Assembly (NCBI GenBank): GCA_003660235.1
Contig: QGON01000071.1
Span: 434,001-498,000, forward strand
Source: a bacterium endosymbiont of Escarpia laminata
Lineage (GTDB): Bacteria > Pseudomonadota > Gammaproteobacteria > Chromatiales > Chromatiaceae
Length of the DNA stretch: 64,000 nt
Direction of reading: 5' to 3'
Below are positions 1,027 to 37,478 of this stretch, in pieces; position 1 is the first letter of the stretch; every line of letters begins with the position of its first letter. The notes beneath the pieces were generated by a model. It was not told the DNA's origin and did not search any database. It saw only the letters and a list, made by a program, of their open reading frames with translations. Position numbers and translations under genes: made by a program.

Positions 1027-1145
1027 TTCCCCCAACCACCCTTCCGAACCGTCTGATAAACCGTTATCATTCGTCGGGATAACAACCATACCCACGGACG
1101 ATATCTTCAAGGTGAATCTACTGTTCCGAGCCGGATTCAAACCCG

Positions 1146-4152: not shown

Positions 4153-5960
4153 TGGCTAAAAACAGTGCTCAAACGGCAGTCCGCAACCGGGACTACTCCT
4201 GGAGTGAACTGACCGGCATGGTCCTGCAGCACCGGCAGGAACTGATTGCTGCAAACATCATTGCCATCTTCGGCGCTATTGCTGCGGTACCTGTCCCCCT
4301 GCTGATCCCACTGCTCGTGGACGAAGTGCTGCTCAACCAGCCGGGACGTGCAATAGCCATTATCGACAGCCTCTTCCCTGCAGGTTGGCAGGGGCCGACG
4401 CTCTATATTCTCGCAGTGTTGGGTCTTACCCTGATACTGCGCCTGATCACCCTGATCCTCGGTGTCTGGCAAACCCGCCAGTTCACCTGCATCGCCAAAG
4501 ATGTCATCTTTCGAATCCGGCGGGACCTGTTGCAACGCCTTGAGCACATCTCCATGTCCGCCTATGAGACCCTCGGCAGCGGCACGGTGGCATCCCACCT
4601 GGTAACCGATCTGGATGCAGTGGACAACTTTGTCAGCACGACTACCAGCAAATTTCTTGTGGCGGTGCTCACCATTACCGGCACCGCCATGGTGCTACTC
4701 TGGATAAACTGGCCGCTTGCTCTGTTCATTCTGCTGCTGAACCCAATAGTCATCTATTTTACGATGGTTTTCGGCCGGCGGGTAAAGCGCCTGAAAAGAG
4801 AGGAGAACTCTGCCTTCCAACTGTTTCAGGAATCCCTGGAAGAGACCCTCGATGCGATCCAGCAGATCCGCGCCAGCAATCGGGAACGTCACTACATTCA
4901 GCGCATCATCGACAAGGCGGAGAGTATTCGCCACCACTCCGCCGCCTTCACCTGGAAGAGTGACGCCGCGGGACGGCTCTCCTTTGTCATCTTTCTTTTC
5001 GGCTTTGATATTTTCCGCGCTGTGAGCATGTTCATGGTGCTCTATTCCGACCTCACGATCGGCGAGATGCTGGGTGTCTTCGCCTATCTCTGGTTCATGA
5101 TGGGGCCGGTGCAGGAGGTGTTGAACGTTCAGTACGCCTACCAGAGCGCACAGGCGGCACTGAGCCGGATCAATCAACTGATGCGGGTCGACCTGGAACC
5201 CGTTTTTCCCCATTTGGAAAACCCGTTCAAAGGTAAAACAACCGTCTCTGTCGGACTGAAAAACATCCATTTTGCCTATGGTGAGGGGCCTCCCGTGCTC
5301 AACGATATTTCATTGCAAATATCCGCCGGAGAAAAAGTGGCCCTGGTGGGTGCGAGCGGTGGAGGAAAAACCACCCTGGTGCAGATTCTGCTCGGACTCT
5401 ACCCTCCCGCTTCGGGAGAGGTGCTGTTCGATGGTGTACCTGTCAACCGAATCGGCATGGACGTGGTAAGAGATCATGTGGCAACCGTGCTGCAACACCC
5501 TGCGCTGCTAAACGACAGCGTGCGGGTCAATCTTACGCTTGGCCGCGATGTACCTGAAACAGAACTCTGGCAGGCGCTGAAAATCGCTCAGCTCGATGCA
5601 ACGATAGAGAGAATGGATCAGGGGTTGGAGACACTGATCGGCCGTTTCGGCGTGCGTCTCTCCGGCGGCCAGCGGCAACGGCTGGCAATTGCCCGTATGG
5701 TTCTGACCAACCCCAGTGTTGTCATCCTTGATGAAGCCACCTCCGCCCTTGACACCACAACCGAGGGAAACCTCCACTCGGCGCTGCAGCAGTTTCTGGC
5801 GGGTCGCACCACTATCATCATCGCCCATCGTTTGAGTGCGGTAAAACAGGCCGACAGGGTTCTGGTATTCGAAGACGGCAGGGTTGTGGAGCAGGGAAGG
5901 CATGATGAGCTGATCGCAAACAATGGACTCTACTCCTCTCTATACGGTCAACAGCAGTAA
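4152..5960 (+). CDS. ABC exporter half-transporter (membrane and ATPase fused)
   Basis: A 602-residue half transporter of the type that works as a homodimer in the inner membrane. Residues about 35-330 hold six membrane helices (type I exporter fold), and about 355-602 the nucleotide-binding domain. Walker A is GASGGGKT at 400-407, the signature LSGGQ at 503-507, and Walker B VVILDEA with D527/E528; an H-loop histidine follows in IIAHRLS. All catalytic motifs are intact. The family includes MsbA-like lipid flippases and bacteriocin or drug exporters; the substrate cannot be told from sequence alone. It starts one base inside the preceding gene's stop. Confidence 0.93.
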   Translation: MAKNSAQTAVRNRDYSWSELTGMVLQHRQELIAANIIAIFGAIAAVPVPLLIPLLVDEVLLNQPGRAIAIIDSLFPAGWQGPTLYILAVLGLTLILRLITLILGVWQTRQFTCIAKDVIFRIRRDLLQRLEHISMSAYETLGSGTVASHLVTDLDAVDNFVSTTTSKFLVAVLTITGTAMVLLWINWPLALFILLLNPIVIYFTMVFGRRVKRLKREENSAFQLFQESLEETLDAIQQIRASNRERHYIQRIIDKAESIRHHSAAFTWKSDAAGRLSFVIFLFGFDIFRAVSMFMVLYSDLTIGEMLGVFAYLWFMMGPVQEVLNVQYAYQSAQAALSRINQLMRVDLEPVFPHLENPFKGKTTVSVGLKNIHFAYGEGPPVLNDISLQISAGEKVALVGASGGGKTTLVQILLGLYPPASGEVLFDGVPVNRIGMDVVRDHVATVLQHPALLNDSVRVNLTLGRDVPETELWQALKIAQLDATIERMDQGLETLIGRFGVRLSGGQRQRLAIARMVLTNPSVVILDEATSALDTTTEGNLHSALQQFLAGRTTIIIAHRLSAVKQADRVLVFEDGRVVEQGRHDELIANNGLYSSLYGQQQ

Positions 5961-6133
5961 ATCCATGAAGTTTGGCGTCAAACCGCACAACTCTATTCCA
6001 CTTGCCAGAAACGCAGTCCAGTTCGACTTCAACCCCTGTAAGCACCCCCACCATGAAAAAGTTAAAGTTGAAGACAGATATACACGAGTGCGACAATCAC
6101 CCCGGACCAGCCACGGACGAGATAAGAGCGATA

Positions 6134-6496
6134 ATGTTCAATCAGGCACTCTCTTCACAAGCAAACTGCGCATCAACAATTCCGGCTTTAACCGGATTGT
6201 GGCCGATTTTAATTATTCTCTGCAGCAGCTCGTTGGTGTTCGCAAACGACCCCCTGCCCCAAGCATCGGGACTGGATCTCTCCGTACCCGACATGGAGCC
6301 GGCCGTCACATTGGAGAAACACCACAACCGCACGGTGGAGGAGTACCGCGTCAACAATAATCTCTATATGATCAAAGTGACCCCGAATATCGGCCCCTCA
6401 TATTATATGGTTGATCCGGACGGCAGCGGCGAAATGGAGATGAAACGCGGCCCAGCCGAAGTCAATGTGCCTAAATGGACACTTTTCAGTTGGTAA
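6134..6496 (+). CDS. DUF2782 family exported protein
   Basis: The C-terminal half contains the DUF2782 pattern: acidic PEVT-like stretch, VEEYRVNNNLYMIKVTP, then GPSYYMVDPDGSGEM. This is a short gammaproteobacterial periplasmic family of unknown function. The reading frame is open from 5972, but the ATG at 6134 puts a hydrophobic signal segment (LWPILIILCSSSLVFAND) near the N-terminus, giving a 120-residue protein like the rest of the family, so I prefer it. No gene follows closely on this strand before the binding protein at 6547. Confidence 0.75.
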   Translation: MFNQALSSQANCASTIPALTGLWPILIILCSSSLVFANDPLPQASGLDLSVPDMEPAVTLEKHHNRTVEEYRVNNNLYMIKVTPNIGPSYYMVDPDGSGEMEMKRGPAEVNVPKWTLFSW

Positions 6497-6546
6497 CTCA
6501 GCGCAACCTCAAAACCGGCACATGAGCCAATCAAAACGAGAACACC

Positions 6547-7572
6547 ATGAACAGTAATAGAATCATGCGATGGATACTGACCGGACTCCTGTTGGCAGCA
6601 GCCAGTACAACCGCGCTTGCGAACACGCTCGAAACCGTTAAAAAACACGGAACACTACGCTGCGGCGTCAACACAGGCTTGCCTGGGTTTGCGCTGAAGA
6701 GTAGTTCAGGTCGCTGGGAAGGCATGGACGCCGATTTCTGTCGGGCAGTGGCAGCTGCAGTCTTCGGCGATGCCGAAAAAGTTGAATTCATTCCCCACAC
6801 AACCAAAACACGTCTGCAGGCATTGCAGAATGGCAGCATCGATCTACTGGCGCACAACGTCACCTGGACCATGAGCCGAGATCTCGGCACGGGTCTCGAC
6901 TTTGTCGGCATCTACTATTTTGACGGCCAGGGTTTCATGGTACGCAAGGATATGAAAGTACGCAGCGCCCTCGCCCTGAATGGAAGCAGCATCTGCGTCA
7001 TCGGCGGCACCACAAGTGAAGCCAACGTAAAAGAGTATTTCATCAGGCATCAGATGAAACTTCGCCTGGTGAGTTCAGATACCTCACTGGATGCACTGAA
7101 GAATTTTGAGCAAGGCAAATGCGACGTCCTCACCAGCGATCTGTCACAGCTCTACGCCCTGCGCACCCACACACAAAAACCCGGCGATTATAAGGTGCTG
7201 CCGGAACCCATTTCCAAGGAGCCCCTCGGCCCAGTGGTGCGTGAAGGTGACGATAACTGGCGCGACATCGTCCAATGGACGCTGTTTACCCTGATCAACG
7301 CCGAGGAGATGGGAGTCAGCTCCCACAACATCGACCGTGTTCTGGAGATCGCACACACCCCTGAGGTTCTGCGTCTGCTTGGCAAAACGGGCGCTGCAGG
7401 CAAATCTCTAGGTCTGAAAAACGACTGGTCCTATCAAATCATCCGCAAGGTCGGTAATTACGGCGAGATTTTCGAGCGCAATCTGGGAAAAGACACTCCG
7501 CTCAAAATGAGACGTGGATTCAATTCAACCTGGCAAAATGGCGGACTGCTCTATGCGCCTCCCGTACGGTAA
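6547..7572 (+). CDS. Amino-acid ABC transporter substrate-binding protein (AapJ-like)
   Basis: A 341-residue periplasmic binding protein: signal peptide at residues 1-25 (cleavage near ALA-NT), then the family opening TLETVKKHGTLRCGVNTGLPGF, a GMDADFCRAVAAAVFGD segment and the long type of lobe structure seen in general L-amino-acid binding proteins (AapJ/BztA group). The permease and ATPase genes expected beside an aap operon are absent here, so it is an orphan receptor. It may serve a transporter elsewhere or a sensory role. Confidence 0.88.
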   Translation: MNSNRIMRWILTGLLLAAASTTALANTLETVKKHGTLRCGVNTGLPGFALKSSSGRWEGMDADFCRAVAAAVFGDAEKVEFIPHTTKTRLQALQNGSIDLLAHNVTWTMSRDLGTGLDFVGIYYFDGQGFMVRKDMKVRSALALNGSSICVIGGTTSEANVKEYFIRHQMKLRLVSSDTSLDALKNFEQGKCDVLTSDLSQLYALRTHTQKPGDYKVLPEPISKEPLGPVVREGDDNWRDIVQWTLFTLINAEEMGVSSHNIDRVLEIAHTPEVLRLLGKTGAAGKSLGLKNDWSYQIIRKVGNYGEIFERNLGKDTPLKMRRGFNSTWQNGGLLYAPPVR

Positions 7573-7590
7573 TAATCTAGGAGGCCAGCA

Positions 7591-8247
7591 ATGTTCACAG
7601 GCATCGTTCAGGGGACAGCAGAGGTCGTCGAGATCATCGAAAAAAGTGGCTTTCGCACCCACAAAGTCCGTCTGCCAGGCAATCTCCTGGATGGACTGGA
7701 ACCCGGCGCCTCCGTGGCTCATAACGGTTGCTGTCTGACGGTTACCGGAATCGAGGACGATCGGGTCAGTTTTGACCTGATGCAGGAGACCCTGCGGGTT
7801 ACCAATCTCGGCGAGGTGAAAACGGGCGACCGGGTGAATGTGGAACGGGCCGCCCGCTTCGGGGATGAGATCGGCGGTCATCAAATGTCCGGCCATATCC
7901 TCTGCACAGCGGTTGTGATCGATGTGGTCGCAACCGAAAACAATCATCAGGTTCGTTTCAGACTGCCTGATGAGTGGAAAAAATACCTCTTTACCAAAGG
8001 ATACATCGGCATCGACGGTATCAGTTTGACCATCGGTGAGGTATCCGGCAACGAATTCGAGGTCAATCTGATTCCCGAAACCCTGGCACGCACCAACATC
8101 GGCCGTCGCAAACCCGGGAACCGGATCAATATCGAGGTCGACCCGCAAACCCAAGCTATCGTTGATACCGTGGAACGGGTTTTGGCAAAAACGCCTAACC
8201 CGGTCGATTTTGGGGAAGCAGGTTCCGAGAAGAGAAAACGATTGTAA
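7591..8247 (+). CDS. ribE: Riboflavin synthase alpha chain
   Basis: A 218-residue protein beginning MFTGIVQG, the invariant N-terminus of riboflavin synthase, with two tandem lumazine-binding barrels (about 1-97 and 98-195). NGCCLTVT in the first and DGISLTIG in the second are the equivalent binding loops. The enzyme dismutates two 6,7-dimethyl-8-ribityllumazine molecules to riboflavin. A strong ribosome site (CTAGGAGG) precedes the ATG by seven bases. The usual neighbours ribBA, ribH and nusB are not in this window. Also named ribC in Escherichia coli. Confidence 0.95.
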
Positions 8248-8409
8248 AATCACGCGCAAATAATCGCCCAAAATACCGCTCCAGTCTCACTTGGCCCTGT
8301 TCATTCATCGATTTGTGACGCAAAATATTGCCTATCTGTAACGAACAGAGTCTCGGCTGATCTCCGCGACCCATGTCGTCTTCGTCTTCGATTCCAGATA
8401 AATACTTTG

Positions 8410-9613
8410 ATGCAGGCAAGTGAAACAACCATAGAGGCTCCACCCGTTCGCGTCGCAGCCTTGGGCGTCGACGATCGTATCAAAAACAGCCTGCGCCTAT
8501 TTTTCCACGAATCCTGCAAGGATCGATTCCAACTGGTGGAAGATGAGGCAGCAGACACCGTCATCATCGATCTCGACCATAAAATAAGGGGTAAGACTGG
8601 CACAGGAGCAGCGACAGCTTCATCCATCCACACCGGTCATAGTAATCTCCCAGGATCTGCGGGAGACAGGCAGCCTCATAAGCCTGCTCAAACCACTGAA
8701 AAAACGCAGTCTTGCAAAAGCACTGTTACGGGCTGAAGCTCAGGCGAAAGACCCACAGAATCTCTCATCAACCCTGCCCAGCCTGCAAATTGCATCAGCG
8801 CCTGTCGCGCCTGCTGAAGAGAGTGGCGACGATGTGGTCATGGAGGGGGCACCTCCCACCAGCGCAGGCTATCAGATCGCCCGCCACCTTGCGGAAAAGG
8901 ATATCCAGGCTTTCCTGGGGTCAACCCCCGATATCGATACGACTAGTGCCCAGCAACTGGCCAATATCCGCTACGACCCGGATAGTTTTTTCCAGGGAAA
9001 ACTACGCCAAATCACTGCCATGATGAAACAAAAAGGGCAGGCGGTGCGACTGCAGTTTTCCGAGGAAGAGTTCATTATCCTCTATCCCGACGAAGAGATT
9101 GCGCAGATAAATATGAGTGAATCCAGGTTAGGGGCTCTCTCCGCTGCCCCCATATCACCGGGTGGTCTCTCATTCACTTTTTGCGATGATCTCTTCTCAC
9201 CGGATGATGGGGCTGCGGATTCAATAATGCGCCTAGACGCTCTCATGTGGAAAACAGCACTTTGGGCCTCACGGGGCCGTATCCCCTACGAAACCGATCT
9301 CCACAGAGCGGTTGCCCTGGATCGCTGGCCAAACCTGACCCGTCTGTTGTTACTGCCCAACACCCTTGAGATTGCCGCACTCTGGGCGGAACAACCGCAC
9401 TCACTCATCGAAACGGCTGCAAAGCTAAAAATCCCGCAGCGCTACGTTTTCGGCTTCTACAGCGCAGTTTTCGCCTTGGGGCTGGCAAATACAGGAGAGA
9501 CGATGAAGGCCCTCGACTATATCCCGATTGCTGCCGATGTGGGGGAAAAACAACCGGTCTCTACCAGTTGGCTCAGCAACTGGATACCATTTTTCCGCAG
9601 TAAAAACGGATGA
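8410..9613 (+). pseudogene. Receiver-like protein gene interrupted by one frameshift
   Basis: Two frames make one coherent protein. Frame one from the ATG at 8410 gives a receiver-like start (VRVAALGVDDRIKNSLRLFF ... DTVIIDLDHKI) and runs out at 8736. Frame two is blocked by a TAA at 8585-8587, but after it reads VRLAQEQRQLHPSTPVIVIS, then SLLKPLKKRSL, the expected receiver C-terminal part with a KP motif, and on through a conserved-looking helical domain to 9613. Ignoring one G in the GGGG run at 8588-8591 joins them (about 400 residues). It ends in an overlap with the GTPase ATG (9610), which suggests a regulatory partner. The cause may be a real mutation or a homopolymer sequencing error. 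I do not recognise the C-terminal domain. Confidence 0.75.
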
Positions 9614-10149
9614 AAAAAGACCTCAAAATCATCTTTACCGGGCCGGTGGGGGCAGGCAAAACCACCGCGATCAACGCCATCAGTGATACTGATACCGTAT
9701 CCACCAATGAATCCTCCACGGACGAACTCCGCTATCGTAAAAACACCACCACAGTCGCAATGGATTACGGCATCATCAACATGGTGGACAGCAAGCGGGT
9801 GCATCTCTACGGAACACCCGGTCAAGCGCGTTTCGACTTCATGTGGGACATCCTGATTCAGGGTGGCATGGGACTGGTCCTACTGGTGGATAATGCCCGC
9901 CCCGACCCTCTGGAAGACATGCAGTTTTTTCTGCAGCGATTCGGGGACTTCATCCAACGCACCCGAGTCGCTATCGGTGTTACCCGGATGGATATTTCCA
10001 GCACACCCAGACTGAACGAATACCAGACACTGTTGAATAACCAGACGCGAAATATCCCACTTTTCGAAGTGGATGCCAGAGTCAGGCAGGACGTATCCAT
10101 CCTGCTGCAGTCGTTGCTTCATTCTCTGGATCATCAGAAGCGCGAATAA
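9610..10149 (+). CDS. Ras/MglA-like small GTPase
   Basis: A 179-residue single-domain GTPase. G1 is GPVGAGKTT (residues 11-19), the switch II motif is YGTPGQARF in place of canonical DxxGQ, and the base-recognition motif is TRMD rather than NKxD. The central strands (VHLYGTPG, GLVLLVDNARP, RVAIGVTRMD) are well formed. Bacterial GTPases of this MglA/SRPRB-like group act as polarity or regulatory switches, often with a partner encoded next to them. The overlapping upstream receiver-like gene is the obvious candidate partner. Confidence 0.88.
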   Translation: MKKDLKIIFTGPVGAGKTTAINAISDTDTVSTNESSTDELRYRKNTTTVAMDYGIINMVDSKRVHLYGTPGQARFDFMWDILIQGGMGLVLLVDNARPDPLEDMQFFLQRFGDFIQRTRVAIGVTRMDISSTPRLNEYQTLLNNQTRNIPLFEVDARVRQDVSILLQSLLHSLDHQKRE

Positions 10150-10206
10150 TCAGAGTGCAGACCGCTCAACCGGCAGCCCAGCAATACCCTTTGTCACTCC
10201 AGAAAT

Positions 10207-10231
10207 GCCCGATCCGCTCGCTTGATCGGGC
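10207..10231. repeat. GCCCGATC palindrome (second copy)
   Basis: Inverted repeat GCCCGATC (10207-10214) and GATCGGGC (10224-10231), in the opposite orientation to the copy at 3652-3677. It lies 57 bases after the GTPase stop and may help end transcription, although no T run follows directly on the plus strand. Confidence 0.7.
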
Positions 10232-10430
10232 CTGCCCCTCCATTCATTGATTACCATATTAGAAAATATCGATGACTTTTGCGCCGTCTCGTGCTATTTT
10301 TCCGCATCGGTTTCAAGGTCAGATTCATCGCGTATCGGCACCCGCCAGCGTGCACTTTGTCAGACCAAAAGGCACACCGGCTTCTAGGAAAATCCGGCGT
10401 ACCTGATATTTTCACCTTCCTGATTGGGTC

Positions 10431-11900
10431 GTGATGGGTTCGCTCACTCAACTACTGATTACACCTGTCGCCACAGCGGTGCTTATCGCCCTGCTTCCTG
10501 GGCAGAATCAACGTCTGATCCGGGGGGTCGCGCTCTTCGGCTCTGCCATCGCCTTGCTGCTCTCCTGGCGCTTATTCGCCGGCTTTGACAACTCCCTTGC
10601 AGATATGCAATTCATGGAGATTGTGCCCTGGAACCCGCGCCTCGGCACCTCTTATGCCGTCGGCATTGACGGTATCTCCCTCTCCATGATCCTGCTGGCA
10701 ACCCTGCTCAGTCTGGTCGCCCTGGCCGCTTCGGCCAGCATCACCAAGCAGGTGAAAGGCTACTACATACTGGTGTTGGTGCTGGAATCCGCCATGCTTG
10801 GGGTATTCATGGCCCAGGACTGGTCGCTATTCTATGTCTTCTGGGAGCTGACTCTGATCCCGCTCTTCTTCCTCATCGATCGCTGGGGAGGGAAAAATCG
10901 TCAGGGTGCGGCACTCAATTTCGTGCTCTACACCATGGGCGGGTCGGTCTTTATGCTGCTTAGCCTGCTGGTGCTTTTCGACACCCTGCCGGGCCACTCC
11001 TTTGCCATGGATCAGATGCGTGCCGGCGCGCATCTGATTTCCGAACAGAAACAGGTCCTGATCTTTTTGGGTTTTCTCATCGGTTTCGGGGTCAAGATGC
11101 CGATCTTTCCGATCCACGGCTGGCTGCCGCTGGCCCACGTCGAGGCACCGAGTCCTATCAGCATCCTGCTCTCCGGCATCCTGTTGAAGATGGGGTCCTA
11201 CGGCCTGATCCGTGCCGCACAGACCCTGCCCGATGCCGTCATCTCCCTGCAGGGGGTACTGGTTGCCATCGCGTTGGTAAGTCTGGTCTACGGTGGTCTG
11301 TTGGCCTGGCGGCAATGGGATCTGAAACGGATGATCGCCTACTCTTCGGTCAGCCACATGGGTGTGGTATTACTGGGCATCGCAACCCTCAATTTCGCCG
11401 GTCTGACCGGAGCGGTCATGCAGATGATGGCGCATGGATTGGTGGCGGGCGCCATGTTCCTGCTGATCGGACTGCTCTATGAACGCACCCACACGCGCAA
11501 CATCAACGACTACAGCTCTCTGCTGCGGGTAGCACCACGCTTTGCCTTCTTCACCACGATTGCTTTTATCGGCGCCGTTGGCCTGCCCGGCACTTTTGGT
11601 TTTATCGCCGAACTACACGTCCTGATTGGCGGTTTCGAACGTTGGGGCTGGCTGGTGGTACTGCTGACCCTGGGCGTATTGATCAGCGCTGCCTATGCGA
11701 TACGCACTATCGGCCGTCTCTTCACCGGGCCTGTTCGGAAGGAGATGCAGGATATCGAAGACCTGCGGCCCAGCGAAATGGCGGGCGCCATCGTGTTGAC
11801 TGGCGGCATTGTGTTATTGGGCGTCTTCCCAGCTCCGGCACTGGAGCTGATATCCGCCTCCATCACCCAGTTGAGCGCCACCTTCGCGGCCCATCTGTAA
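10431..11900 (+). CDS. NuoM/MrpD-like proton antiporter subunit of the DAB operon (first)
   Basis: A polytopic membrane protein of 489 residues (488 if the ATG at 10434 is used instead of GTG at 10431). It has the Proton_antipo_M family landmarks: FWELTLIPLFFLIDRW with the transmembrane glutamate, VKMPIFPIHGWLPLAHVEAP with the pumping lysine, and LLKMGSYGLIR with the second lysine. By family knowledge it would translocate cations. Its position directly before dabA suggests it supplies ion coupling to DIC uptake rather than to complex I, whose peripheral NADH-oxidising subunits are absent. Confidence 0.88.
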   Translation: MMGSLTQLLITPVATAVLIALLPGQNQRLIRGVALFGSAIALLLSWRLFAGFDNSLADMQFMEIVPWNPRLGTSYAVGIDGISLSMILLATLLSLVALAASASITKQVKGYYILVLVLESAMLGVFMAQDWSLFYVFWELTLIPLFFLIDRWGGKNRQGAALNFVLYTMGGSVFMLLSLLVLFDTLPGHSFAMDQMRAGAHLISEQKQVLIFLGFLIGFGVKMPIFPIHGWLPLAHVEAPSPISILLSGILLKMGSYGLIRAAQTLPDAVISLQGVLVAIALVSLVYGGLLAWRQWDLKRMIAYSSVSHMGVVLLGIATLNFAGLTGAVMQMMAHGLVAGAMFLLIGLLYERTHTRNINDYSSLLRVAPRFAFFTTIAFIGAVGLPGTFGFIAELHVLIGGFERWGWLVVLLTLGVLISAAYAIRTIGRLFTGPVRKEMQDIEDLRPSEMAGAIVLTGGIVLLGVFPAPALELISASITQLSATFAAHL

Positions 11901-11919
11901 TCAAGCGAGGAGAAAACCT

Positions 11920-14900
11920 TTGTCCGCCGCCAGCCATGAGACAGATTCCGCCGATATCCGCAGCCGTCTGCACCATGTTATCGAGCACTTCGAACATGTA
12001 CTGCCGGGACAGGCGCCGATCAAGGACTTCGTCCACCACAACACGCTGCACGGCTTCCAGCATCTGGAATTCACCGAGGCACTGGCCGAGGCGGAACGCA
12101 TCACCGGTGCCAGGGGCTATCTGCCGGATGAGCGTTTCCGGGAGTTCTACGCTGAGGGGCGCATCACCCTGGAAGATCTGCGGGCCGTCATCGATGAGAC
12201 CCCGGCACTGGAGCCCGACGAGATCCTGCTGGAGAATATCGACGGCGCACTGACCCACCGTGATGTCACCATTGCCGCACTGCTCCACCCCCTGAAGACA
12301 ATTACCGCCTGCCAGTTCAACTGGCAGGTCGAGGAGTTGGATGTCCTGCAACGTTTTCAGTCAGATGTCGACAACAATACCCGCAGGCATATTCTCGAAG
12401 CCGCCGCCGAGCAGGGTCTGAGCGACGAAAAGGCCGCCATCTCCGATCTCTGGGCCACCTGCCTCGAAACCTTCGGTCTGGAGGAGTTCCACATGCACCC
12501 GGAGGAGCTGATTGATCTCTCTCCGGAGCAGGCGGAGCGCATGTTGCACACCCTGACCATTGAGGACGACAGCTTCAGCAGCGTTCACTACCGGGTGCGA
12601 AAAGAATCAGCCAAGCAACTCGACCGAACGCTATCGCGGGTCGGACCGGAAATCACCCTGCGTGGCCTGTTGCTTGAAGTGACTGGCAAGGATCTGCTTG
12701 ATGAGATCCGTCCACTGCTCATCCGTTTCATCGCCAGTTTTCTCGACCAGGGTCAGGCGGCATGGCAATTCCCCGAGCGCGAAACAGGCTTTTACACCAC
12801 TTGGCGCCGCAGCGTCGCCGTCTCTCTGACCGGCTTCTTCAACGAAATGCCGGAGTGGCAGGACGAGATCGCGATTCTCGACGAAGACCCGATGGCGGCC
12901 GTGATCTCCGAGCTGCAGCGCATGGGGCTCCCCGAAGCACGCTGGGAATCCTATCTAGAAAGACTCGCTCTGGAGCTGCCCGGCTGGTCCGGCATGTTCC
13001 TCTATCGACACAACCATCCCGGCTACGAAGGCTCTCACGATGTCTCCGTGGAGATGCTGGACTATCTCGCGGTACGCCTGGTGATGGAACGCCTTTTCGC
13101 CCAGCGACTGTGCGATCAGCAGTGGCAAATCGCGTCCAACCTGGACATGCTGCGCTGGTACTTCCGAAGACGCCGCTCCGAGTTCATGGTGCGCCACAGC
13201 CTGCACAACAACCGGTTGCCGGAGTATCTCGTCAGCCATGCGCAACAGCTTCAACAGCAGACGCCCACACCCAGCGATGACTATCCCCAGTGGCGTCAAC
13301 TGGCTGATATGATCTGGACATGGCGTCAAAGTCCCGCCTCCGACCGCCCAAGCGGGTATTCGATCTACGGCAGCGCCTGGCGGCTCTTTCGTCTGAGCCA
13401 GCATCTGGGACTCATCGGGCAGGATATCGTTAACCTTGGCGAACAGGGCGTAAAAAAACTCTTTGATTGCCTGCAACGCCTCACTCCCGATACCCAAAGT
13501 TTCCTCTGGCTGCAGGCCTACGAGCGCAACTACCGCGAGCAAATCTTCAACGCGATCGTCAACAATGAGGGGCGGGGCCGCTGGAAGAGCCGCGAGACCA
13601 CACCCGCCGCGCAAATCGTCTGGTGCATGGACGATCGTGAAGAGGGCATCCGCCGCCACCTGGAAGTCATCAATCCCGCCATCGAAACCTTTGGTGCGGC
13701 TGCCCACTACAACGTCCCGCACAACTGGCGGGGCTTCACCGACGAGAAGATTTCCGGACTCTGTCCGGTGGTCATGGTGCCGGCACACGAGATCAGGGAA
13801 ACAGTACATCCCGGCGCGGAAACCCAGGCAAATCAGCGCCATAAACGGCACAAGAAACGGCTTTGGCTGAAAGATCTCCTGATGCAGGAGACCCGCCGCA
13901 ACCTGCTGGGATCGACCGCACTGATCGCGCTGGCCGCCCCCGCCACTCTCGGGATTCTGGTAGCCAAGGTGTTGGCGCCGCTAAAGGTTGGCAAACTCTC
14001 TGCCAAACTGCGTGATACTTACGAAACCGCCGTGCAGACCGACATTGCCGTCACCGCAGCACCAGATGCACCCGAAGGTACGATCGAACACAACCGTCTC
14101 GGTTTCTCGGATGAGGAACAGGCCGACCGGGTAGAGACATTTCTACAAAACATCGGTCTGGTGGATGGCTTCTCACCACTGCCCATCATCATGGGCCACG
14201 GCTCCAGCAGCGAGAACAATCCGCACCGCGCCGCTTACGACTGCGGCGCCTGCAGCGGCCGTCACTCCGGTCCCAATGCGCGTATTCTTGCCGCCATCGC
14301 CAACCGCCCGGAGATCAGAGAGATCCTGTCTCAACGGGGAATCGATATCCCCAAGAACAGCTGGTTCATCGGCGCCTTCCACAATACCTGCGATGAGAGC
14401 TTCGACTGGCTCGATATGGACAAGGTGCCAAAGTCCCATCAGCAGATTCTCTCGGTTATCCAGAGAAATGTGGACGAAGCCAGTCGCCATTCGGCCCATG
14501 AGCGCTGCCGTAAATTTTTCTCCGCCCCGAAACAACCCAACCTGAAGCAGGCACTTGCCCATATCCAGGGGCGCGGCAACGACTTCAGCCAGGCACGTCC
14601 TGAACTGGGCCATGCCACCAACGCCTGCGCCTTCATCGGCCGCCGCTCCATTACCCAGGGTGCCTTCTTCGACCGCCGGGCCTTCCTTATCTCCTACGAT
14701 CCCACCATCGATCCCAACGGAGAGATCGTCGAACGTCTGCTGTTGGCCAATGGACCGGTGGGCGCGGGCATCAGTCTGGAGTACTACTTCTCCACCGTGA
14801 ACAACGACGAGTACGGCTGTGGTTCCAAGGTAACCCACAACATCACCGGCCTCTTCGGCGTCATGGAGGGGACCAGCTCCGACCTGCGCACCGGCCTGCC

Positions 14901-31895: not shown

Positions 31896-31946
31896 GGAGC
31901 GGCGCCTCGCCGCGATATAACCCTCTACGGAGCCATCGTGGCGGGG
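31896..31946. repeat. REP remnant upstream of the DGR target gene
   Basis: The left arm GGAGCGGCGCCTCGCCGCG, the spacer TATAACCCTCTACGGAGCC and a decayed right arm TCGTGGCGGGG. The spacer is the same as in the intact REP pair at 36937-37002 except for one base, and the right arm has lost its far end. It ends 30 bases before the DGR target gene. Confidence 0.75.
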
Positions 31947-31975: not shown

Positions 31976-34888
31976 ATGGACTCAGATATTGACAATGATA
32001 CTGCGTTGATCGGAAACGGAAGCCCGGAACCCTTCAGGATATTCCTCGCCTCACCAGGTGACGTGCCACTGGAGCGCAAGCTGGCCCGTGAAGCCATCAT
32101 CCACATAGGCAACGAGCGCCGTTTCCGCGGCCGCTTCGACATCGAAATCGTCGCTTGGGATCAACCCGGTGCAGCCGTGGCCATGGAAGCGGGACTGACG
32201 CCACAGGAGGCTATCACACAAGGTCTGCCCAAACCGGAAGCGTGTGACCTTGCGGTCATCGTTTTATGGTCACGCATCGGCACCCAGCTTCCCATCGACT
32301 TCGAGCTGAAGGAGGACGGGACACCCTATCTTTCGGGCACCGAGTGGGAGTATCTCAACGCCCTCAAGGGCTACCGAAGCAACCGTAAACCGGCGGTTTG
32401 GGTCTATCGCCGACAAGGTGCGCCAAAATTTGCAGCCGACGATCCTGAGCTATCCATCAAGCTCGATCAGTGGAACAAACTGGAAAGCTTCTTCTCCGCT
32501 TTCAGCAACCCGGACGGCTCCCTAACAGGGGGCATTAACAGCTACGAATCACCGGACGATTTCCGCAAGCAGTTTGAACATCACCTGCGCGACAGGCTGG
32601 ACAAACTGTTGGAAACACTGCCCACAATTGAATCGGTTCAGCCAGACAACCGGGGCGCACCCCGCTGGACCGCCTCGCCCTACCCTGGGCTGGAGGCATT
32701 CACGCCGGAGCAGGCACCAATCTTCTTTGGCCGTGGCAAGGAAACCGACCAACTGTTACAGCACTTCACCGACCTGGAGGTGCGGTTTGTCGCCGTCGTC
32801 GGTGTCTCGGGATCGGGTAAGTCCTCTCTGGTCAAAGCCGGACTTCTGCCGCGACTGCGCACCGGTATCATCGGCAACGCACCCTGGATTGATCTCTGCT
32901 TCAAACCTGGTGAGCGGGGGGACAACCCCTTTCTGGCACTCTCCTTCGCGCTCAAGTCTGCGCTGGAAATCCCCGGCCAGACAGAGCAGGAGATCGCCCG
33001 TGAATTACAGACCGATAACAACGTTGCGCCCAAACACCTGACTAAACTGCTGGAGCAACATGGGTCAGCCGGTGAACTCCTGCTCGTGGTGGATCAGTTC
33101 GAGGAACTGTTCACGCAGACGGCGGCGAATCACCGTCAAGGGTTTCTCACGCTGCTGGATCACATCATCACCCAACCACGCCTGCGTGTCATCGTCACGA
33201 TGCGTGCCGACTTTTATGCCCGGGCCATTGAAGAATCCACCTTGGCAAAACTGCTGCGCCGGGATCGCAGCACCTTTCCACTGGATCCCCCCGGCATAGG
33301 CGCCATTCACCAGATGATTGTCAGGCCTGCCGAAGCCGCAGGTGTGGAGTTGCAGGAAGGATTGGCGCAACGCCTGCTGGATGACGCAGGTGAAGGCCCC
33401 GGCTCAATGGCACTGATCGCTTTTACCCTGAACCAGCTTTATCAGCAAGAACAAAGTTCACGTTACCTGAGCATTGATGCCTATGAGACCTTTGGCGGTG
33501 TGAAGGGCGCGGTACAAAAACGGGCGGAGACAGCACTGCAGGGACTGCCTGCAAATAGCGACATCGCATTGCCTAAACTGTTCGCCGGCCTGGTCGAGGT
33601 CAACGAGCAAGAGATGGCGACCCGCCGCAGGCTACTGCAGTCAACACTAAACAGTGACGATAAAATTGTTGGCGCTGCACTCACTGAAGCACGCCTGCTG
33701 GTCACCGGTGAAGGCGCAAAGAAACAGCCAACGCTGGAGGTGGCCCACGAAACCATACTCACCGGCTGGAAGCAACTGCGTGAGTGGATCCGGGACCATG
33801 CCGAGGCCTTGCGCGCCCGTCGTGACCTGGAACGGGTAGCCAGCGAGTGGGACAATTCAGACCGCCCCGGTGGCGCACTGCGCACCGGCAAACTTCTACA
33901 GCGTTATCTCGGTGCCGCCGAGCCACGCTCCGCGACTGCGGATGACTACCTGGTGGCCTGCAAACGGCGCCGCAACACGGCGCGCGTCGGATATGCCATG
34001 CTGGGCCTGTTGGTCATTGCCATGCTCGGCATTCTCTTCCACGTCAACAACTCCGACTACCCGCCATCCCTCGCCGCCAGGGCGCTTTTCGTCCAGTTGG
34101 GGGTGTGGCCGGCAGCACAACCGGAGATGGAGAGGATCCCCGCCGGCGAATTCGAGATGGGCGATCTCTCCGGGGATGGAGACAGCGATGAGCGCCCCGT
34201 CCACACCGTGCGGTTCGCGCAACCATTCGAGATGGGCAGATATGAGGTAACCTTCGAGGAGTACGACCTGTTTGCCGCCGCCACCGGGCAGGACAAACCC
34301 AATGATGAAGGTTGGGGGCGCGGTCGCCGCCCGGTGATCAATGTCAGCTGGATCGATGCAGGGGCTTATACCCAGTGGCTTTCAGAACGTACCGGCCTGA
34401 AATACCGCCTGCCGTTAGAGGCGGAGTGGGAATACGCCGCGCGCGCGACGACAACGACGCCACGTTTCTGGGCTGAAAATGCCGAAGATGAAGTGGATGC
34501 CGCCTGTGCCTACGCCAACGTATTCGACAAGAAAAACGAATCACGCTTGAAAAGCAGCTACAACATAACTTGGGAGCCGTTTGGTTGCGCGGATGATTTC
34601 CCGTTCACGGCACCAGTGGGAGAATTTCGAACCAACGACTGGGGACTGCATGACATGCTCGGGAACGTCTGGGAGTGGAATCAGGACTGCTATATTGCTA
34701 GCTACGAGGACGCCCTCGGGGATGGTTCGACCCGTGGTCCTGCGGATGGCGGCGAGTGTGCTCGCCGTGTGTTGCGCGGCGGCTCGTGGGGCGACGTGCC
34801 GCAGTTCGTTCGTTCCGCTTCCCGCGTCAGGGTCACGCCGGATTACCGCGGCACCCGTGTTGGTTTTCGGCTTGCCAGGACGCTTTGA
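31976..34888 (+). CDS. DGR target: STAND NTPase with variable FGE/C-type-lectin domain
   Basis: A 970-residue protein. Residues about 17-215 form an N-terminal domain (FRIFLASPGDVPLERKLARE) like the DUF4062 or TIR-related modules of conflict proteins. SPYPGLEAF at 234 opens a STAND (nSTAND1-type) NTPase, with Walker A GVSGSGKS at 276-283 and Walker B LLLVVDQFEE with D373. A helical region follows, then one membrane helix at about 671-690. From 718 (MERIPAGEFEMGD) to the end is a formylglycine-generating-enzyme/sulfatase-modifying fold (DMLGNVWEWNQD, VLRGGSW), used as a C-type-lectin-like scaffold in DGRs. Codons 929-968 are the variable repeat. The start is ATG 31976. It is probably a membrane-attached sensor whose ligand-binding tip is diversified, inferred from family knowledge. 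Confidence 0.93.
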   Translation: MDSDIDNDTALIGNGSPEPFRIFLASPGDVPLERKLAREAIIHIGNERRFRGRFDIEIVAWDQPGAAVAMEAGLTPQEAITQGLPKPEACDLAVIVLWSRIGTQLPIDFELKEDGTPYLSGTEWEYLNALKGYRSNRKPAVWVYRRQGAPKFAADDPELSIKLDQWNKLESFFSAFSNPDGSLTGGINSYESPDDFRKQFEHHLRDRLDKLLETLPTIESVQPDNRGAPRWTASPYPGLEAFTPEQAPIFFGRGKETDQLLQHFTDLEVRFVAVVGVSGSGKSSLVKAGLLPRLRTGIIGNAPWIDLCFKPGERGDNPFLALSFALKSALEIPGQTEQEIARELQTDNNVAPKHLTKLLEQHGSAGELLLVVDQFEELFTQTAANHRQGFLTLLDHIITQPRLRVIVTMRADFYARAIEESTLAKLLRRDRSTFPLDPPGIGAIHQMIVRPAEAAGVELQEGLAQRLLDDAGEGPGSMALIAFTLNQLYQQEQSSRYLSIDAYETFGGVKGAVQKRAETALQGLPANSDIALPKLFAGLVEVNEQEMATRRRLLQSTLNSDDKIVGAALTEARLLVTGEGAKKQPTLEVAHETILTGWKQLREWIRDHAEALRARRDLERVASEWDNSDRPGGALRTGKLLQRYLGAAEPRSATADDYLVACKRRRNTARVGYAMLGLLVIAMLGILFHVNNSDYPPSLAARALFVQLGVWPAAQPEMERIPAGEFEMGDLSGDGDSDERPVHTVRFAQPFEMGRYEVTFEEYDLFAAATGQDKPNDEGWGRGRRPVINVSWIDAGAYTQWLSERTGLKYRLPLEAEWEYAARATTTTPRFWAENAEDEVDAACAYANVFDKKNESRLKSSYNITWEPFGCADDFPFTAPVGEFRTNDWGLHDMLGNVWEWNQDCYIASYEDALGDGSTRGPADGGECARRVLRGGSWGDVPQFVRSASRVRVTPDYRGTRVGFRLARTL
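34761..34878 (+). repeat. DGR variable repeat (VR)
   Basis: A 118-base segment inside the target gene, colinear without gaps with the template at 36480-36597. By hand alignment 97 of 118 bases agree and all 21 differences lie at template adenines (11 to G, 7 to T, 3 to C). The first 29 bases and the last 21 bases are identical. The changes alter 11 residues: 939, 940, 941, 944, 949, 951, 953, 957, 959, 960 and 961. The identical 3' end ends in CTTGCCAG and then diverges; it plays the part of the initiation site for mutagenic homing. Confidence 0.97.
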
Positions 34889-34920
34889 CTTTTTTCTCTT
34901 TGCTTTTTCCCTTTGGGGGT

Positions 34921-34950
34921 ATGGGGGCGTAGCCCCCATCGGAATTTTTT
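34921..34950 (+). terminator. Hairpin with T run after the DGR target gene
   Basis: Perfect 8-base stem ATGGGGGC / GCCCCCAT around GTA, then CGGAATTTTTT. It is 32 bases after the target stop and 43 bases after the VR. It can terminate transcription; it also occupies the place where DGRs carry a stem-loop that helps homing. A decayed copy of the same segment lies at 36883-36920. Confidence 0.75.
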
Positions 34951-34951
34951 A

Positions 34952-35203
34952 ATGGCCAGAAGCGCACTACCTAAAGCGGTTCAGGACTGTCACAACCTGT
35001 TGGTCTGGTTGATTCCGCTGCTGGACAGTTTCCCTCGCAATCGAAGGTTTACGCTCGGCGAACGCATTGAATCAGGTTTGCTTGAGATACTAGAACTACT
35101 GGTGGAAGCGGCCTATGCTAGAAACAAGCGTGACACCCTGAAACGGGCAAACCTGCGGATTGCAGTGGTTCGGCACCTCTGGCGGTTGGCTGAAGAGTGT
35201 TGA
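34952..35203 (+). CDS. avd: DGR accessory protein Avd, apparently truncated
   Basis: An 83-residue basic helical protein (PKAVQDCHNLLVWLIPLLDS, FPRNRRFTLGERIE, ELLVEAAYARNKRDTLKRAN) matching the DGR four-helix-bundle accessory protein, which binds the reverse transcriptase and template RNA and is needed for homing. Family members are usually about 110-125 residues; this one ends after RLAEEC, so most of the fourth helix is missing. The stop is seven bases before an inverted-repeat element that probably replaced the tail. The ATG at 34952 lies next to the terminator T run. Confidence 0.85.
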   Translation: MARSALPKAVQDCHNLLVWLIPLLDSFPRNRRFTLGERIESGLLEILELLVEAAYARNKRDTLKRANLRIAVVRHLWRLAEEC

Positions 35204-35209
35204 TACGGC

Positions 35210-35406
35210 ATAAATTAAGGTGATTAGATACAAAGCTCAGTGGGATTCACAAATTGACTCACCCCTGGTGAACAGGGAAACCAAAGACAGCTTCCCTACT
35301 GTAGGAGCGGCGCCCTCGCGGCGATGCCACGGTTCGAGCCTGGATCGCGGCGAGGGCGCCGCTCCTACCCACCTGCTGAATTTTGCAACTAATCACCTAA
35401 ATTAAT
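35210..35406. mobile_element. MITE-like 197-base inverted-repeat element
   Basis: Terminal inverted repeats of 25 bases (35210-35234 and 35382-35406) match at 21 of 25 positions, with a perfect core GGTGATTAG / CTAATCACC. No coding capacity. It encloses a REP pair at 35301-35368 and lies exactly between the shortened avd and the reverse transcriptase gene. Confidence 0.6.
35301..35368. repeat. REP pair inside the avd-RT spacer
   Basis: Arms GTAGGAGCGGCGCCCTCGCG and CGCGGCGAGGGCGCCGCTCC(TAC) form a nearly perfect long stem with a 20-base loop. The head GTAGGAGCGG matches the other REPs of the window; the central spacer differs from that at 36937. Confidence 0.8.
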
Positions 35407-35415
35407 CATTGCAGC

Positions 35416-36469
35416 ATGAAACGTCTGGGAAGAATCTGGCCTGAAGTGATCAGCTTTGACAATCTGCTCAGTGCCTACCGCAAGGGCAAGCAATCGGTCC
35501 CCGCAGTGACCGAATTCACCCTGAACCTGGAAACAGAACTGCTCAGCCTGCAGCAGGAATTGGCCAGTTTCACCTATCGTCCCGGTGGCTACCGACTGTT
35601 CACCATTTACGAGCGCAAAAAACGCCAGATTGCCGCTGCACCGTTCCGTGACCGCGTGGTGCACCATGCAATTATCAATATCATCGCCCCCCCATCGACC
35701 GACGTTTTATCTTCGACAGCTATGCCTACCGGAAGAACAGGGGCGTGCATGCCGCGGTAAACCGCTATCAACATTGGTCCAGGCAATATCCCTATGTTTT
35801 GAAGATGGATGTCGAGCAGTATTTCCCTTCTATCGATCACGATATCCTCAAAGCAAAACTGCGTCGCTACCTGAAAGACCGTTATGTTCTTGCGCTGCTG
35901 GATAACCTCATCGATACGGCACCAGCCGAAACCGGCAGGCCTGATGCTGTCTATTTTCCGGGAGATGCATTATTGGCACCGCTGGAACGAACAACCGGGC
36001 TGCCCATAGGTAATCTGACCAGCCAGTTTTTGTGAATCTATACCTGGATTCCATGGACCATTTCATCAAGGAGCAACTCCGGGTTCGCGCCTATCTGAGG
36101 TACGTTGACGATCTGGTGATCCTGGGCCGGGACAAGGTGCGGCTGCATGAGATTCGGGAAACCATTCGCGAACGCCTGGCGGAAGACCGACTGCGGCTGC
36201 ATCCGCGCAAGGCGCATATCTATCAGGCGGCGCGGGGTATCGATCTGTTCGGCTACCAAGTGTTTCCGCATAAGCGGAAATTGCGCAACGACAATGGCCA
36301 TGCTTTTCGCCGGCGACTTTGCAAAATGCCCCGCCAATATCATGACGGTATGCTGGATTGGGAGGAGATACATCCACGGGTAAGAAGCTGGATCGGTCAT
36401 GCCATTCACGGAGAAACGGAAGGTTTGCGCAAGACACTGTTCGCGTCTACAGTATTTAACCGAGGGTGA
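35416..36469 (+). pseudogene. DGR reverse transcriptase, interrupted by two one-base frameshifts
   Basis: Three frames make one retron/DGR-type RT of about 351 residues: frame one from ATG 35416 (MKRLGRIWPEVISFDNLLSA), frame three from about 35694 (IDRRFIFDSYAYRKNRGVHA, KMDVEQYFPSIDHDIL), frame two from 36032 (NLYLDSMDHF, LRYVDDLVILG). The DGR-specific motif GLPIGNLTSQF is at 36000-36029 and the catalytic YVDD at 36101-36112. The first break is at C7 (35687-35693): one more C restores the frame. The second is at T5 (36027-36031): one more T gives SQFFVNLYLD. Both deficits lie in homopolymers, so either the gene is newly dead, the sequence is wrong, or slippage rescues it. It precedes the template repeat by 10 bases. 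Confidence 0.92.
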
Positions 36470-36479
36470 TGCCGAGCCT

Positions 36480-36597
36480 CTCGCCGTGTGTTGCGCGGCG
36501 GCTCGTGGAACAACGAACCACAGAACGTTCGTTCCGCTAACCGCAACAGGAACACGCCAGATAACCGCAACAACAATGTTGGTTTTCGGCTTGCCAG
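36480..36597 (+). repeat. DGR template repeat (TR)
   Basis: A 118-base non-coding copy of the VR, 10 bases downstream of the RT stop. It has 29 adenines, nearly all in AAC/AAT codons: in the target frame it would read SWNNEPQNVRSANRNRNTPD then NRNNNVGF, the asparagine-rich pattern typical of TRs. Adenine-rich codons allow replacement by up to 15 residues without stop codons. It would be transcribed as the RNA template. Confidence 0.97.
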
Positions 36598-36600
36598 TCC

Positions 36601-36770
36601 GCCCGCCTAGAGCCGGAGTTCTCGGTGCCTAAGGGTATCGGAAGCGCGCCAGCGGGTGTCCATGGCGTCACCTTCAGGCTTATCAGGATGATGCAGCCGA
36701 ATAGCCTCCGCAGGGCAGCGGTGAAGCGGGGTGAGTAGCAAGTGCGAAAATCCCGTTTCGTTTATTGTTG
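36601..36770. other. Gene-free stretch after the template repeat
   Basis: No gene is supportable between the TR and the lptG remnant. It holds the 3' flank of the template, which would include the IMH* region and any 3' part of the template RNA. It belongs to a 339-base gap without an intact gene (36598-36936). Confidence 0.6.
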
Positions 36771-36882
36771 TCAATGCATCCTGCGAAAAAGCCAAAACGC
36801 CAAAACGCCAAAAACAGGCAGAGCATGTGTCGGGAAGGATACCGCAAGCAACGGGTTGATATCATAGACTACTACCAGACAG
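36771..36882 (-). pseudogene. Decayed duplicate of the 3' end of lptG
   Basis: This stretch aligns with 37560-37662, the last 34 codons of lptG, in the same orientation. Shared runs include GTGTCGGGAAGGAT and GGGTTGATATCATAGACTAC. The copy has an extra eight-base unit (CCAAAACG repeated), a one-base insertion (CATGTGT for CAGTGT) and scattered substitutions, so it no longer encodes the protein. It lies 677 bases from the true gene end, with the RAYT and its REPs between them. Confidence 0.85.
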
Positions 36883-36920
36883 GGGTATGAGAGCTTAGCC
36901 CCCATCGGATTTTTTCATGG
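36883..36920 (+). repeat. Decayed copy of the post-VR hairpin segment
   Basis: GGGTATGAGAGCTTAGCCCC followed by CATCGGATTTTTTCATGGC matches the segment at 34918-34955 (GGGTATGGGGGCGTAGCCCC, CATCGGAATTTTTTAATGGC) with few changes. The changed bases break the stem. It directly abuts the lptG remnant. Confidence 0.75.
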
Positions 36921-36936
36921 CACATAATTGCCCTGC

Positions 36937-37002
36937 GTAGGAGCGGTGCCTCGCCGCGATTTAACCCTCTACGGAGCCATCGCGGCGAGGCGCCGCTCCT
37001 AC
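36937..37002. repeat. Intact REP pair on the 3' side of the RAYT gene
   Basis: Arms GTAGGAGCGGTGCCTCGCCG and CGGCGAGGCGCCGCTCCTAC with the spacer TTTAACCCTCTACGGAGCC. One mismatch in the stem. The right arm (36979-37002) is identical over 24 bases to the single arm at 37510-37533, so the RAYT gene is enclosed by direct copies of one REP arm. Confidence 0.88.
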
Positions 37003-37025: not shown

Positions 37026-37478
37026 TCATAACCACATCGCATCCCATAGCGGATAATCACTCACCCGCTTCACCAAACCGGCGCGTATCGGATTGGCCAC
37101 CACATAGCGTGCAACCAATTTCACATCCTCGTCCCGGCGCAGGGCATGATCATGGAATCCTGCCTGCCATACCGGACGATGAATACCCAACGACCGGTTG
37201 ATACTGTGTGCGCTGGCAGATTTGACACCCTGTACAACGCTGGAGAGACTCACTTTCTCCAACTGCATAAGCCAGTGAAGATGGTCGGGCATAATGACAT
37301 AACAGAGCGTCGTTGCAGGGGCGTTACGCAAGGTCGAGACCAACACTCTGCCAAGTTGGAGATTTGTAAACAGCGCGGATCGTTCATGGGTCACTGCTGT
37401 GATCAGATAGATACGGCCTGGTTCACTAAAGCGGCCTTGACGTAATGTATGGCCTTTGGGGCTGTTGGGTTTATCCAT
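37026..37478 (-). CDS. REP-associated tyrosine transposase (RAYT)
   Basis: A 150-residue Y1-type single-strand transposase of the IS200/IS605-related TnpA-REP family. The HUH motif is PDHLHWLMQL, the catalytic tyrosine lies in LVARYVVANPIRAGLV, and the N-terminus (RQGRFSEPGRIYLITAVTHE) is typical. RAYTs nick and join REP hairpins and are single-copy domesticated enzymes. The coding sequence is intact and flanked by REPs of the same sequence on both sides, as expected for a RAYT and its cognate REPs. The start is ATG 37478. Confidence 0.93.
   Translation of the reverse strand: MDKPNSPKGHTLRQGRFSEPGRIYLITAVTHERSALFTNLQLGRVLVSTLRNAPATTLCYVIMPDHLHWLMQLEKVSLSSVVQGVKSASAHSINRSLGIHRPVWQAGFHDHALRRDEDVKLVARYVVANPIRAGLVKRVSDYPLWDAMWL

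What the first reader, a model, noticed from the sequence alone, without database searches (positions are those of the whole stretch)
34761..36597. Diversity-generating retroelement with pure adenine-directed VR/TR divergence
Aligning 34761-34878 with 36480-36597 gives 118 columns without gaps and 21 mismatches, every one at a template adenine (21 of 29 A changed; 0 of 89 other bases changed). This cannot be ordinary drift and matches the mutagenic retrohoming signature of DGRs. The order target-VR, avd, RT, TR and the LPIGNLTSQ motif of the RT agree. The 11 altered residues are confined to the tip of an FGE/C-type-lectin fold.
Basis: partly seen in the sequence, partly recalled or inferred. 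Interest (0 to 1): 0.95.

Follow-up and report, generated by a model that had tools for sequence, protein, structure and literature searches.

The report
Decaying gene-diversifying element beside immune-like receptor
A bacterium carries a known kind of self-mutating cassette that once rewrote the sensor tip of an immune-receptor-like protein; here its copying enzyme looks broken, which may have frozen one version of the sensor, and its template ends in a conserved folded RNA tail that matches no family in the RNA library searched.

Summary
It is a diversity-generating retroelement (DGR) of known type. The target is a 970-aa NLR-like protein: DUF4062-like domain, nSTAND1 NTPase, hydrophobic segment, and the FGE/C-type-lectin sensor that carries the VR.

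The RT is split over three frames, both breaks at short homopolymer runs, and Avd is cut short beside a MITE-like repeat with a 91% copy elsewhere in the genome. The five congeners examined lack the cassette at this site. A second, complete DGR lies elsewhere in the genome. I read the locus as a recently disabled ("frozen") DGR; assembly error in the RT is the main rival.

Beyond the finding, a structured RNA sits directly 3' of the TR (36594-36711). A model built from 7 loci found 13 further places in samples of 369 and 96 genomes (overlapping), plus one at the host's second DGR. All 14 lie beside DGR or FGE parts, with strong covariation and no Rfam match. Of 17 assessable loci with this element, 7 have a damaged or missing RT.

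The parts
31976..34888 (+). target gene, 970 aa, NLR-like
   Evidence: one open frame; nSTAND1 E 9.9e-102 and FGE-sulfatase E 5.9e-53
32033..32620 (+). DUF4062-like N-terminal domain (residues about 20-215), candidate effector
   Evidence: PF13271 E 0.015 for this protein, 5 of 5 alignment members match, best 2.6e-5; PADLOC PDC-S60 E 7.4e-7 over residues 20-215
32678..33868 (+). nSTAND1 NTPase (residues 235-631)
33983..34045 (+). hydrophobic, probably membrane-spanning segment (residues 670-690)
   Evidence: hydropathy
34121..34879 (+). FGE/C-type-lectin domain (residues 716-968)
   Evidence: 2y3c match over 880-967, E 4.5e-10
34761..34878 (+). variable repeat (VR)
34921..34939 (+). 8-bp GC-rich hairpin with 3-nt loop downstream of the VR; could also be the target gene's terminator
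34952..35203 (+). avd, 83 aa, truncated
   Evidence: NF033474 E 5.6e-18; L029 homolog has 116 aa
35217..35399 (+). MITE-like repeat following the truncated avd, REP-like palindrome inside
   Evidence: inverted ends; 91% copy on G000:C25
35416..35760 (+). RT, first frame (homology to L029 over the first 92 residues)
35745..36035 (+). RT, second frame
36032..36469 (+). RT, third frame, with YVDD
   Evidence: RVT_1 E 2.4e-8
36480..36597 (+). template repeat (TR)
36594..36711 (+). conserved structured RNA element 3' of the TR
36771..36883 (+). partial duplicate of the lptG 3' end, at the right edge of the cassette
37026..37478 (-). Y1 (IS200-like, REP-associated type) transposase inside the inserted stretch
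   Evidence: PF01797 E 1.3e-8; absent from the same site in five congeners

Best explanation
This is a chromosomal DGR that sits at a site where its congeners have none. The TR transcript, ending in a structured 3' RNA, was copied by an error-prone RT with Avd, and the adenine-mutated cDNA replaced the VR in the FGE sensor domain of an NLR-like receptor (DUF4062-like effector, nSTAND1 switch, hydrophobic anchor, lectin-like sensor). Shown by sequence: the TR/VR pattern, the gene identities, the occupied and empty sites, the conserved RNA element. Inferred: transcription, retrohoming, and that the receptor detects a ligand (possibly phage), nSTAND1 oligomerises and the DUF4062-like domain acts as an NADase that stops the cell. 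As assembled, the RT is broken in two places and Avd is cut short, so the most likely present state is a recently disabled DGR with one VR allele frozen. TR and RNA tail look undamaged.
For: 21 of 21 changes at A. Avd, RT and target homology. RT piece 3 groups with L029 and L030 (100/100) among the DGR rows, apart from seven group II RTs. RT in three frames against one frame of 354 aa in L029. Avd 83 aa against 116 aa, followed by a repeat with a 91% copy on C25. Empty site in 5 of 5 congeners. Flanking ORFs not split: 13 of 18 align over about 95% or more of their length to one ORF in at least three of five congeners. Past constraint on avd and RT pieces, dN/dS 0.07-0.16 where computable and correctly aligned, and a short end branch for piece 3 (0.079): the damage is recent. 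RNA element with covariation in loci not used to build it. Degenerate DGR loci with MITE-like repeats are described in Thiohalocapsa PB-PSB1 (PMC10907252).
Against: Both RT breaks lie in homopolymer runs (C7, T5), a usual place for sequencing error. No reads were seen. The VR has no non-adenine difference from the TR, so the last retrohoming was recent, which also fits an RT that still works. A cruder test of flanking ORFs flagged 9 of 88 matches for a frame change or stop; by position I take them for antisense or extended ORFs. The DUF4062 match is weak, and no solved TIR-like structure was found by sequence or significantly by fold.
Confidence: 0.75

Rival explanations
1. The DGR is intact and active. 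The two RT frame breaks are sequencing or assembly errors at homopolymer runs, and the shortened Avd is still good enough.
For: Both breaks lie in homopolymer runs. RT pieces are well conserved, with catalytic YVDD. The VR has 0 of 89 non-adenine changes.
Against: The Avd truncation and the repeat after it do not depend on homopolymers. Flanking ORFs are not split. Six other loci with the same RNA element also have a damaged or missing RT.
Confidence: 0.17
2. The VR is now diversified in trans by the second, complete DGR on contig C15.
For: That locus has TR, NACHT-FGE target, Avd and an RT in one frame. Trans activity is proposed for PB-PSB1 (PMC10907252).
Against: Its TR is only 71% like this one, so it is not the template. 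This VR matches its own TR at all 89 non-A sites. The second RNA tail scores 24 bits against 113 with the model, and the RTs are distant (34% over piece 3), so cross-use of this TR by that RT is doubtful.
Confidence: 0.06
3. The RT is made from three frames by programmed ribosomal frameshifting.
For: Frames overlap at both breaks and each break has a run of one base.
Against: The nearest intact relative encodes the RT in one frame, as do nine others with this RNA element.
Confidence: 0.01
4. The repeat pair diverged by drift, gene conversion or a deaminase, not by a DGR.
For: None found.
Against: 21 of 21 changes at A with G, T and C outcomes: an adenine deaminase would give A>G, and drift would also hit the other 89 sites. 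Avd and a DGR-type RT are adjacent.
Confidence: 0.01

Closest known systems
Cellular DGRs of Thiohalocapsa PB-PSB1 with STAND targets (DGR 6: EAD8-nSTAND1-FGE; DGR 3: NACHT-CLec), RT clade 5D (PMC10907252)
   Same: DGR-diversified FGE/CLec sensor fused to a STAND NTPase, several DGRs in one genome, MITE-like repeats and degenerate loci.
   Different: N-terminal DUF4062-like domain here (the term does not occur in that paper's main text); RT split in three frames; clade membership not tested.
Bordetella phage BPP-1 DGR
   Same: Adenine-directed TR to VR transfer, RT, Avd, a folded RNA after the TR (PMC12875486 passage) and a GC-rich hairpin after the VR (PMC3240598 passages).
   Different: TR lies after the RT here. 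The RNA model does not match the BPP-1 stretch at E <= 1. The hairpin loop is GTA, not the 4-nt GRNA reported for phage DGRs. The target is a cellular receptor, not a tail protein.
DUF4062 TIR-like NADases: bacterial Swarozyc and human TEP1 (preprint PMC13174449)
   Same: DUF4062-like domain beside a STAND-type NTPase (in TEP1 a NACHT); conserved glutamates in GTExE are candidate catalytic residues.
   Different: Weak sequence match; the sensor here is a DGR-variable FGE domain. Neither 'DGR' nor 'FGE' occurs in that preprint's main text.

Membership tests
Diversity-generating retroelement | TR/VR pair differing at template adenines only | tested here: met
   21 of 21 mismatches at A
Diversity-generating retroelement | VR at the C-terminus of a C-type-lectin-fold target | tested here: met
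   FGE domain 716-968, variable residues 939-961, 2y3c match; fold itself by homology only
Diversity-generating retroelement | RT of the DGR group with the SQ motif | tested here: met
   IGNLTSQ at the end of the second frame and in the relatives; tree
Diversity-generating retroelement | RT encoded in one open frame, able to work | tested here: not met
   three frames as assembled; sequencing error not excluded. The claim is therefore a degenerate DGR, not an active one
Diversity-generating retroelement | accessory protein Avd | tested here: inconclusive
   homolog present, about a third missing
Diversity-generating retroelement | hairpin downstream of VR, not of TR | tested here: inconclusive
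   8-bp stem present, 3-nt loop, T-rich after it. The scan found such hairpins after 7 of 17 VRs and 1 of 14 TRs
Diversity-generating retroelement | structured RNA after the TR | tested here: met
   covariation in 7 and, separately, 14 loci
Diversity-generating retroelement | mutagenic retrohoming | not testable with these tools
   needs reads or experiment
DGR RT clade 5D (PMC10907252) | RT placement in that reference tree | not tested
   reference set not held; the nSTAND1-FGE target is the only pointer
Antiviral STAND-type receptor | tripartite effector - STAND NTPase - sensor architecture | tested here: met
   nSTAND1 and FGE strong, N-terminus DUF4062-like but weak
Antiviral STAND-type receptor | phage defence activity | not testable with these tools
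   experiment
DUF4062 TIR-like NADase | DUF4062 sequence match with conserved Glu and TIR-like fold | tested here: inconclusive
   E 0.015 for this protein, 5 of 5 alignment members match, best 2.6e-5; GTExE invariant in 5 rows; no PDB sequence match at E <= 1; fold search with a weak model (pLDDT 61.5) gave nothing at E <= 0.001, a plant TIR domain at rank 30

The most novel reading that the evidence does not exclude
The structured RNA 3' of the TR is the cognate priming and recognition RNA of a whole DGR-RT lineage in Gammaproteobacteria. In that lineage the RT is repeatedly broken while TR, RNA tail and an adenine-pure VR persist, as if a receptor allele (here with an NADase-type effector) is diversified for a time and then locked by losing the writer.
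Probability: 0.35. Interest if true: 0.7.

Novelty: new member of a known kind. Interest (0 to 1): 0.5.

Why it matters
DGRs that rewrite STAND-type receptors are proposed to give bacteria a form of adaptive immunity, and the authors of that proposal say it remains to be tested (PMC10907252, abstract). This locus links such a receptor to a candidate NADase effector, shows a writer that appears switched off, and supplies a covariance-supported RNA model that finds templates of this lineage and can be tested for RT-Avd binding and priming.

Tried and rejected
Drift, gene conversion and deaminase readings were rejected by the substitution spectrum. Programmed frameshifting of the RT was put aside because L029 and nine other loci with the RNA element have the RT in one frame. 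A terminator reading of the hairpin after the VR stays open. Viral or plasmid origin: the RNA motif pattern and a 24-base A-free TR pattern have no exact match in the viral collection; the plasmid search gave two distant partial matches. The single-sequence fold of the RNA region is no more stable than its shuffles (z 0.21); the case for structure rests on covariation only. Helix 4 of the RNA model is weak (77% of cells paired, 82%). In one search the comparisons of RT piece 3 with L030 were discarded because a stop symbol shifted the alignment. In one search, 18 of 27 sources had no match at E <= 1 (L008, L031-L035, L040, L042-L048, L096-L099), so the element is bound to a lineage and is not a general DGR feature at this sensitivity. 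Sister-strain VR alleles could not be sought (one genome per species; no metagenome scan). The FGE model (mean pLDDT 66.6) was too weak around the VR to place the variable residues, and I did not search with it. A fold search with the N-terminal model gave no significant match.

Full report
Observation. The genome (G000, 71 contigs, 4.25 Mb, unnamed) holds this TR and VR, the TR of a second DGR at 71%, and a 36-base match in another FGE gene.

Target. The gene 31976-34888 (970 aa) has nSTAND1 at residues 235-631 and FGE at 716-968, a hydrophobic segment at about 670-690 and a DUF4062-like N-terminus. The N-terminal match is weak for this protein alone (E 0.015, below the curated cut-off), but the five aligned homologs all match PF13271, best 2.6e-5, and residues 20-215 match the candidate defence model PDC-S60 (E 7.4e-7). 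The homologs include a NACHT-FGE protein elsewhere in this genome (L111), two NACHT-FGE proteins on the DGR locus of a congener (L043) and a NACHT protein (L110). A 2026 preprint (PMC13174449; abstract and passages seen) reports DUF4062 to be a TIR-like NADase family with antiphage activity; in human TEP1 it lies beside a NACHT. From this I infer the mechanism: variable FGE sensor, STAND switch, NADase output. The chain is inference. A fold search with a low-confidence model was inconclusive.

Machinery. Avd is recognised (NF033474) but ends at 83 aa where its 79%-identical homolog in L029 has 116. The stretch that follows (35217-35399) is a repeat with inverted ends and a 91% copy on contig C25. 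The RT lies in three frames; the frame changes fall in a run of seven C and a run of five T. L029 (a Methylococcaceae MAG) has the same RT in one frame of 354 aa, and L030 (a gammaproteobacterial MAG; by contig number and length the same contig as G050:C243) has one stop late in the gene. In a tree that holds piece 3 only, the window groups with L029 and L030 (100/100) among the DGR rows, which include BPP-1, apart from seven group II RTs (100/100); the program warns of long branches. The best PDB match of the L029 RT is 8ub7, which I recall as the Bordetella phage DGR RT.

Insertion. In five of five congeners the RDD gene (ends at 31854 here) and lptG (from 37560 here) are neighbours with less than 200 bases between them and without this cassette. 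The inserted stretch carries a Y1 transposase and a duplicate of the lptG 3' end. One congener, G001, has a related DGR at another site (RT 55% identical over piece 3). In 142 relatives searched, 22 had a match to piece 3 at E <= 0.001, the weak ones being other RTs.

Is the RT really broken? Of 18 flanking ORFs (longest non-overlapping, some probably not genes), 13 align over about 95% or more of their length to a single ORF in three or more of five congeners; five differ at their ends. A cruder test flagged 9 of 88 matches for a stop or frame change; by position I take them for antisense or extended ORFs. RT and avd pieces show past constraint (two RT comparisons were saturated at synonymous sites and two more misaligned and dropped). 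So the breaks, if real, are recent. Error at homopolymers stays possible, but the avd truncation does not depend on it.

RNA element. The sequence directly after the TR (36594-36711) is conserved in 7 loci of the nearest RT group. The proposed fold has 27 pairs, 94.7% of cells paired, 31 cells changed on both sides, and covariation 0.580 against 0.284 in shuffles and at most 0.169 when slid; it was derived from these sequences. The independent test: a covariance model run on 369 genomes of the class matched in 5 of them (own and four others; 5 places outside the own genome), and on 96 genomes of the family in 11 (13 places, 5 of them training loci). The two samples overlap. The 13 new places plus the second DGR of this genome (24 bits, E 0.0008) gave covariation 0.615 against 0.243, with 72 double-changed cells and 0 of 500 shuffles as high; that alignment is fitted to the model, which favours it. 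12 of the 14 follow a TR-like stretch with at least 9 AAC/AAT in 100 nt; L142 and L143 have 6 each. All 14 have an RT, TR/VR or FGE part on the fetched locus; for L142 and L146 it is an FGE part only. No Rfam match at E <= 1 covers the element in the window or in the loci searched. One paper states that the spacer after the BPP-1 TR folds and recruits RT-Avd (PMC12875486, passage), another that the trailing RNA is predicted to be structured (PMC8867640, passage), so the idea is known. I found no description of this RNA in searches, which cover open papers only and were read as listings apart from the papers named.

RT state across loci with the element (7 training + 14): one open RT in 10 (L007, L029, L036-L039, L041, L115, L117, L148); damaged or missing in 7 (window, L028, L030, L113, L116, L144, L145); not assessable in 4 (L114 and L143 run off the held stretch; L142 and L146 show no RT within about 1.5 kb). 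Four damaged loci besides the window have adenine-biased VRs: L113 21 of 23, L116 16 of 17, L144 21 of 22, L145 14 of 15 and 17 of 17 mismatches. Most are draft assemblies, so part of the damage may be artefact.

Known context. DGR-diversified nSTAND1-FGE and NACHT-CLec receptors, several DGRs per genome, MITE-like repeats and degenerate loci are described for Thiohalocapsa PB-PSB1 (PMC10907252: abstract, first of three parts of Results, first part of section 11, section 14 and passages seen). The finding is therefore a new member of a known kind. What it adds is the DUF4062-type N-terminus (searches listed no paper that joins it to a DGR; open papers only), a nearly complete but damaged unit, and the RNA element.

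Noticed in passing
L007 (G000:C15:48000-66000): 5738-10413: Second, complete DGR in the same genome: TR 5738-5851 before a NACHT-FGE target (5841-8915), Avd 8976-9359, RT 9343-10413 in one frame; 17 of 18 mismatches at A, with a small indel.
   Followed up: partly
window 34916-34973 and 36882-36939: The stretch between VR and avd, with the hairpin and the avd start, has a decayed 74% copy about 285 bases after the TR, perhaps the rest of an older second copy of the cassette.
   Followed up: no
window 31896-31946, 35299-35368, 36940-36999, 37026-37478: REP-like palindromes around the cassette and inside the MITE-like repeat, with a Y1 transposase beside the TR; related palindromes occur at several places in the genome.
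   Followed up: partly
L113 (G281:C269) 1432-2309; L116 (G318:C25) 5860-7117: L113 has TR, VR, RNA element and a shortened avd but no RT between them; L116 has an RT that lacks about residues 102-327, with TR, VR and avd kept.
   Followed up: partly
L142 (G023:C39) 797-1619: The RNA element directly follows an FGE gene instead of a separate TR, with no RT on the 3-kb locus: perhaps a TR fused into a target, or the reverse.
   Followed up: no
L111 (G000:C17) 456-3317 minus; L043 (G003:C35) 4624-7701 plus and 9673-12795 minus: The DUF4062-like domain recurs in NACHT-FGE proteins, also beside a DGR in a congener.
   Followed up: partly
L102 (G001:C1) 1171-1243 minus: A tRNA match lies about 200 bases after the RNA element of the congener's DGR, a possible integration site.
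   Followed up: no
G000:C23:31225-31260 (L008 6123-8510 minus): Another large protein with a C-terminal FGE domain; only 36 bases match the TR, so it is probably not a remote target.
   Followed up: partly
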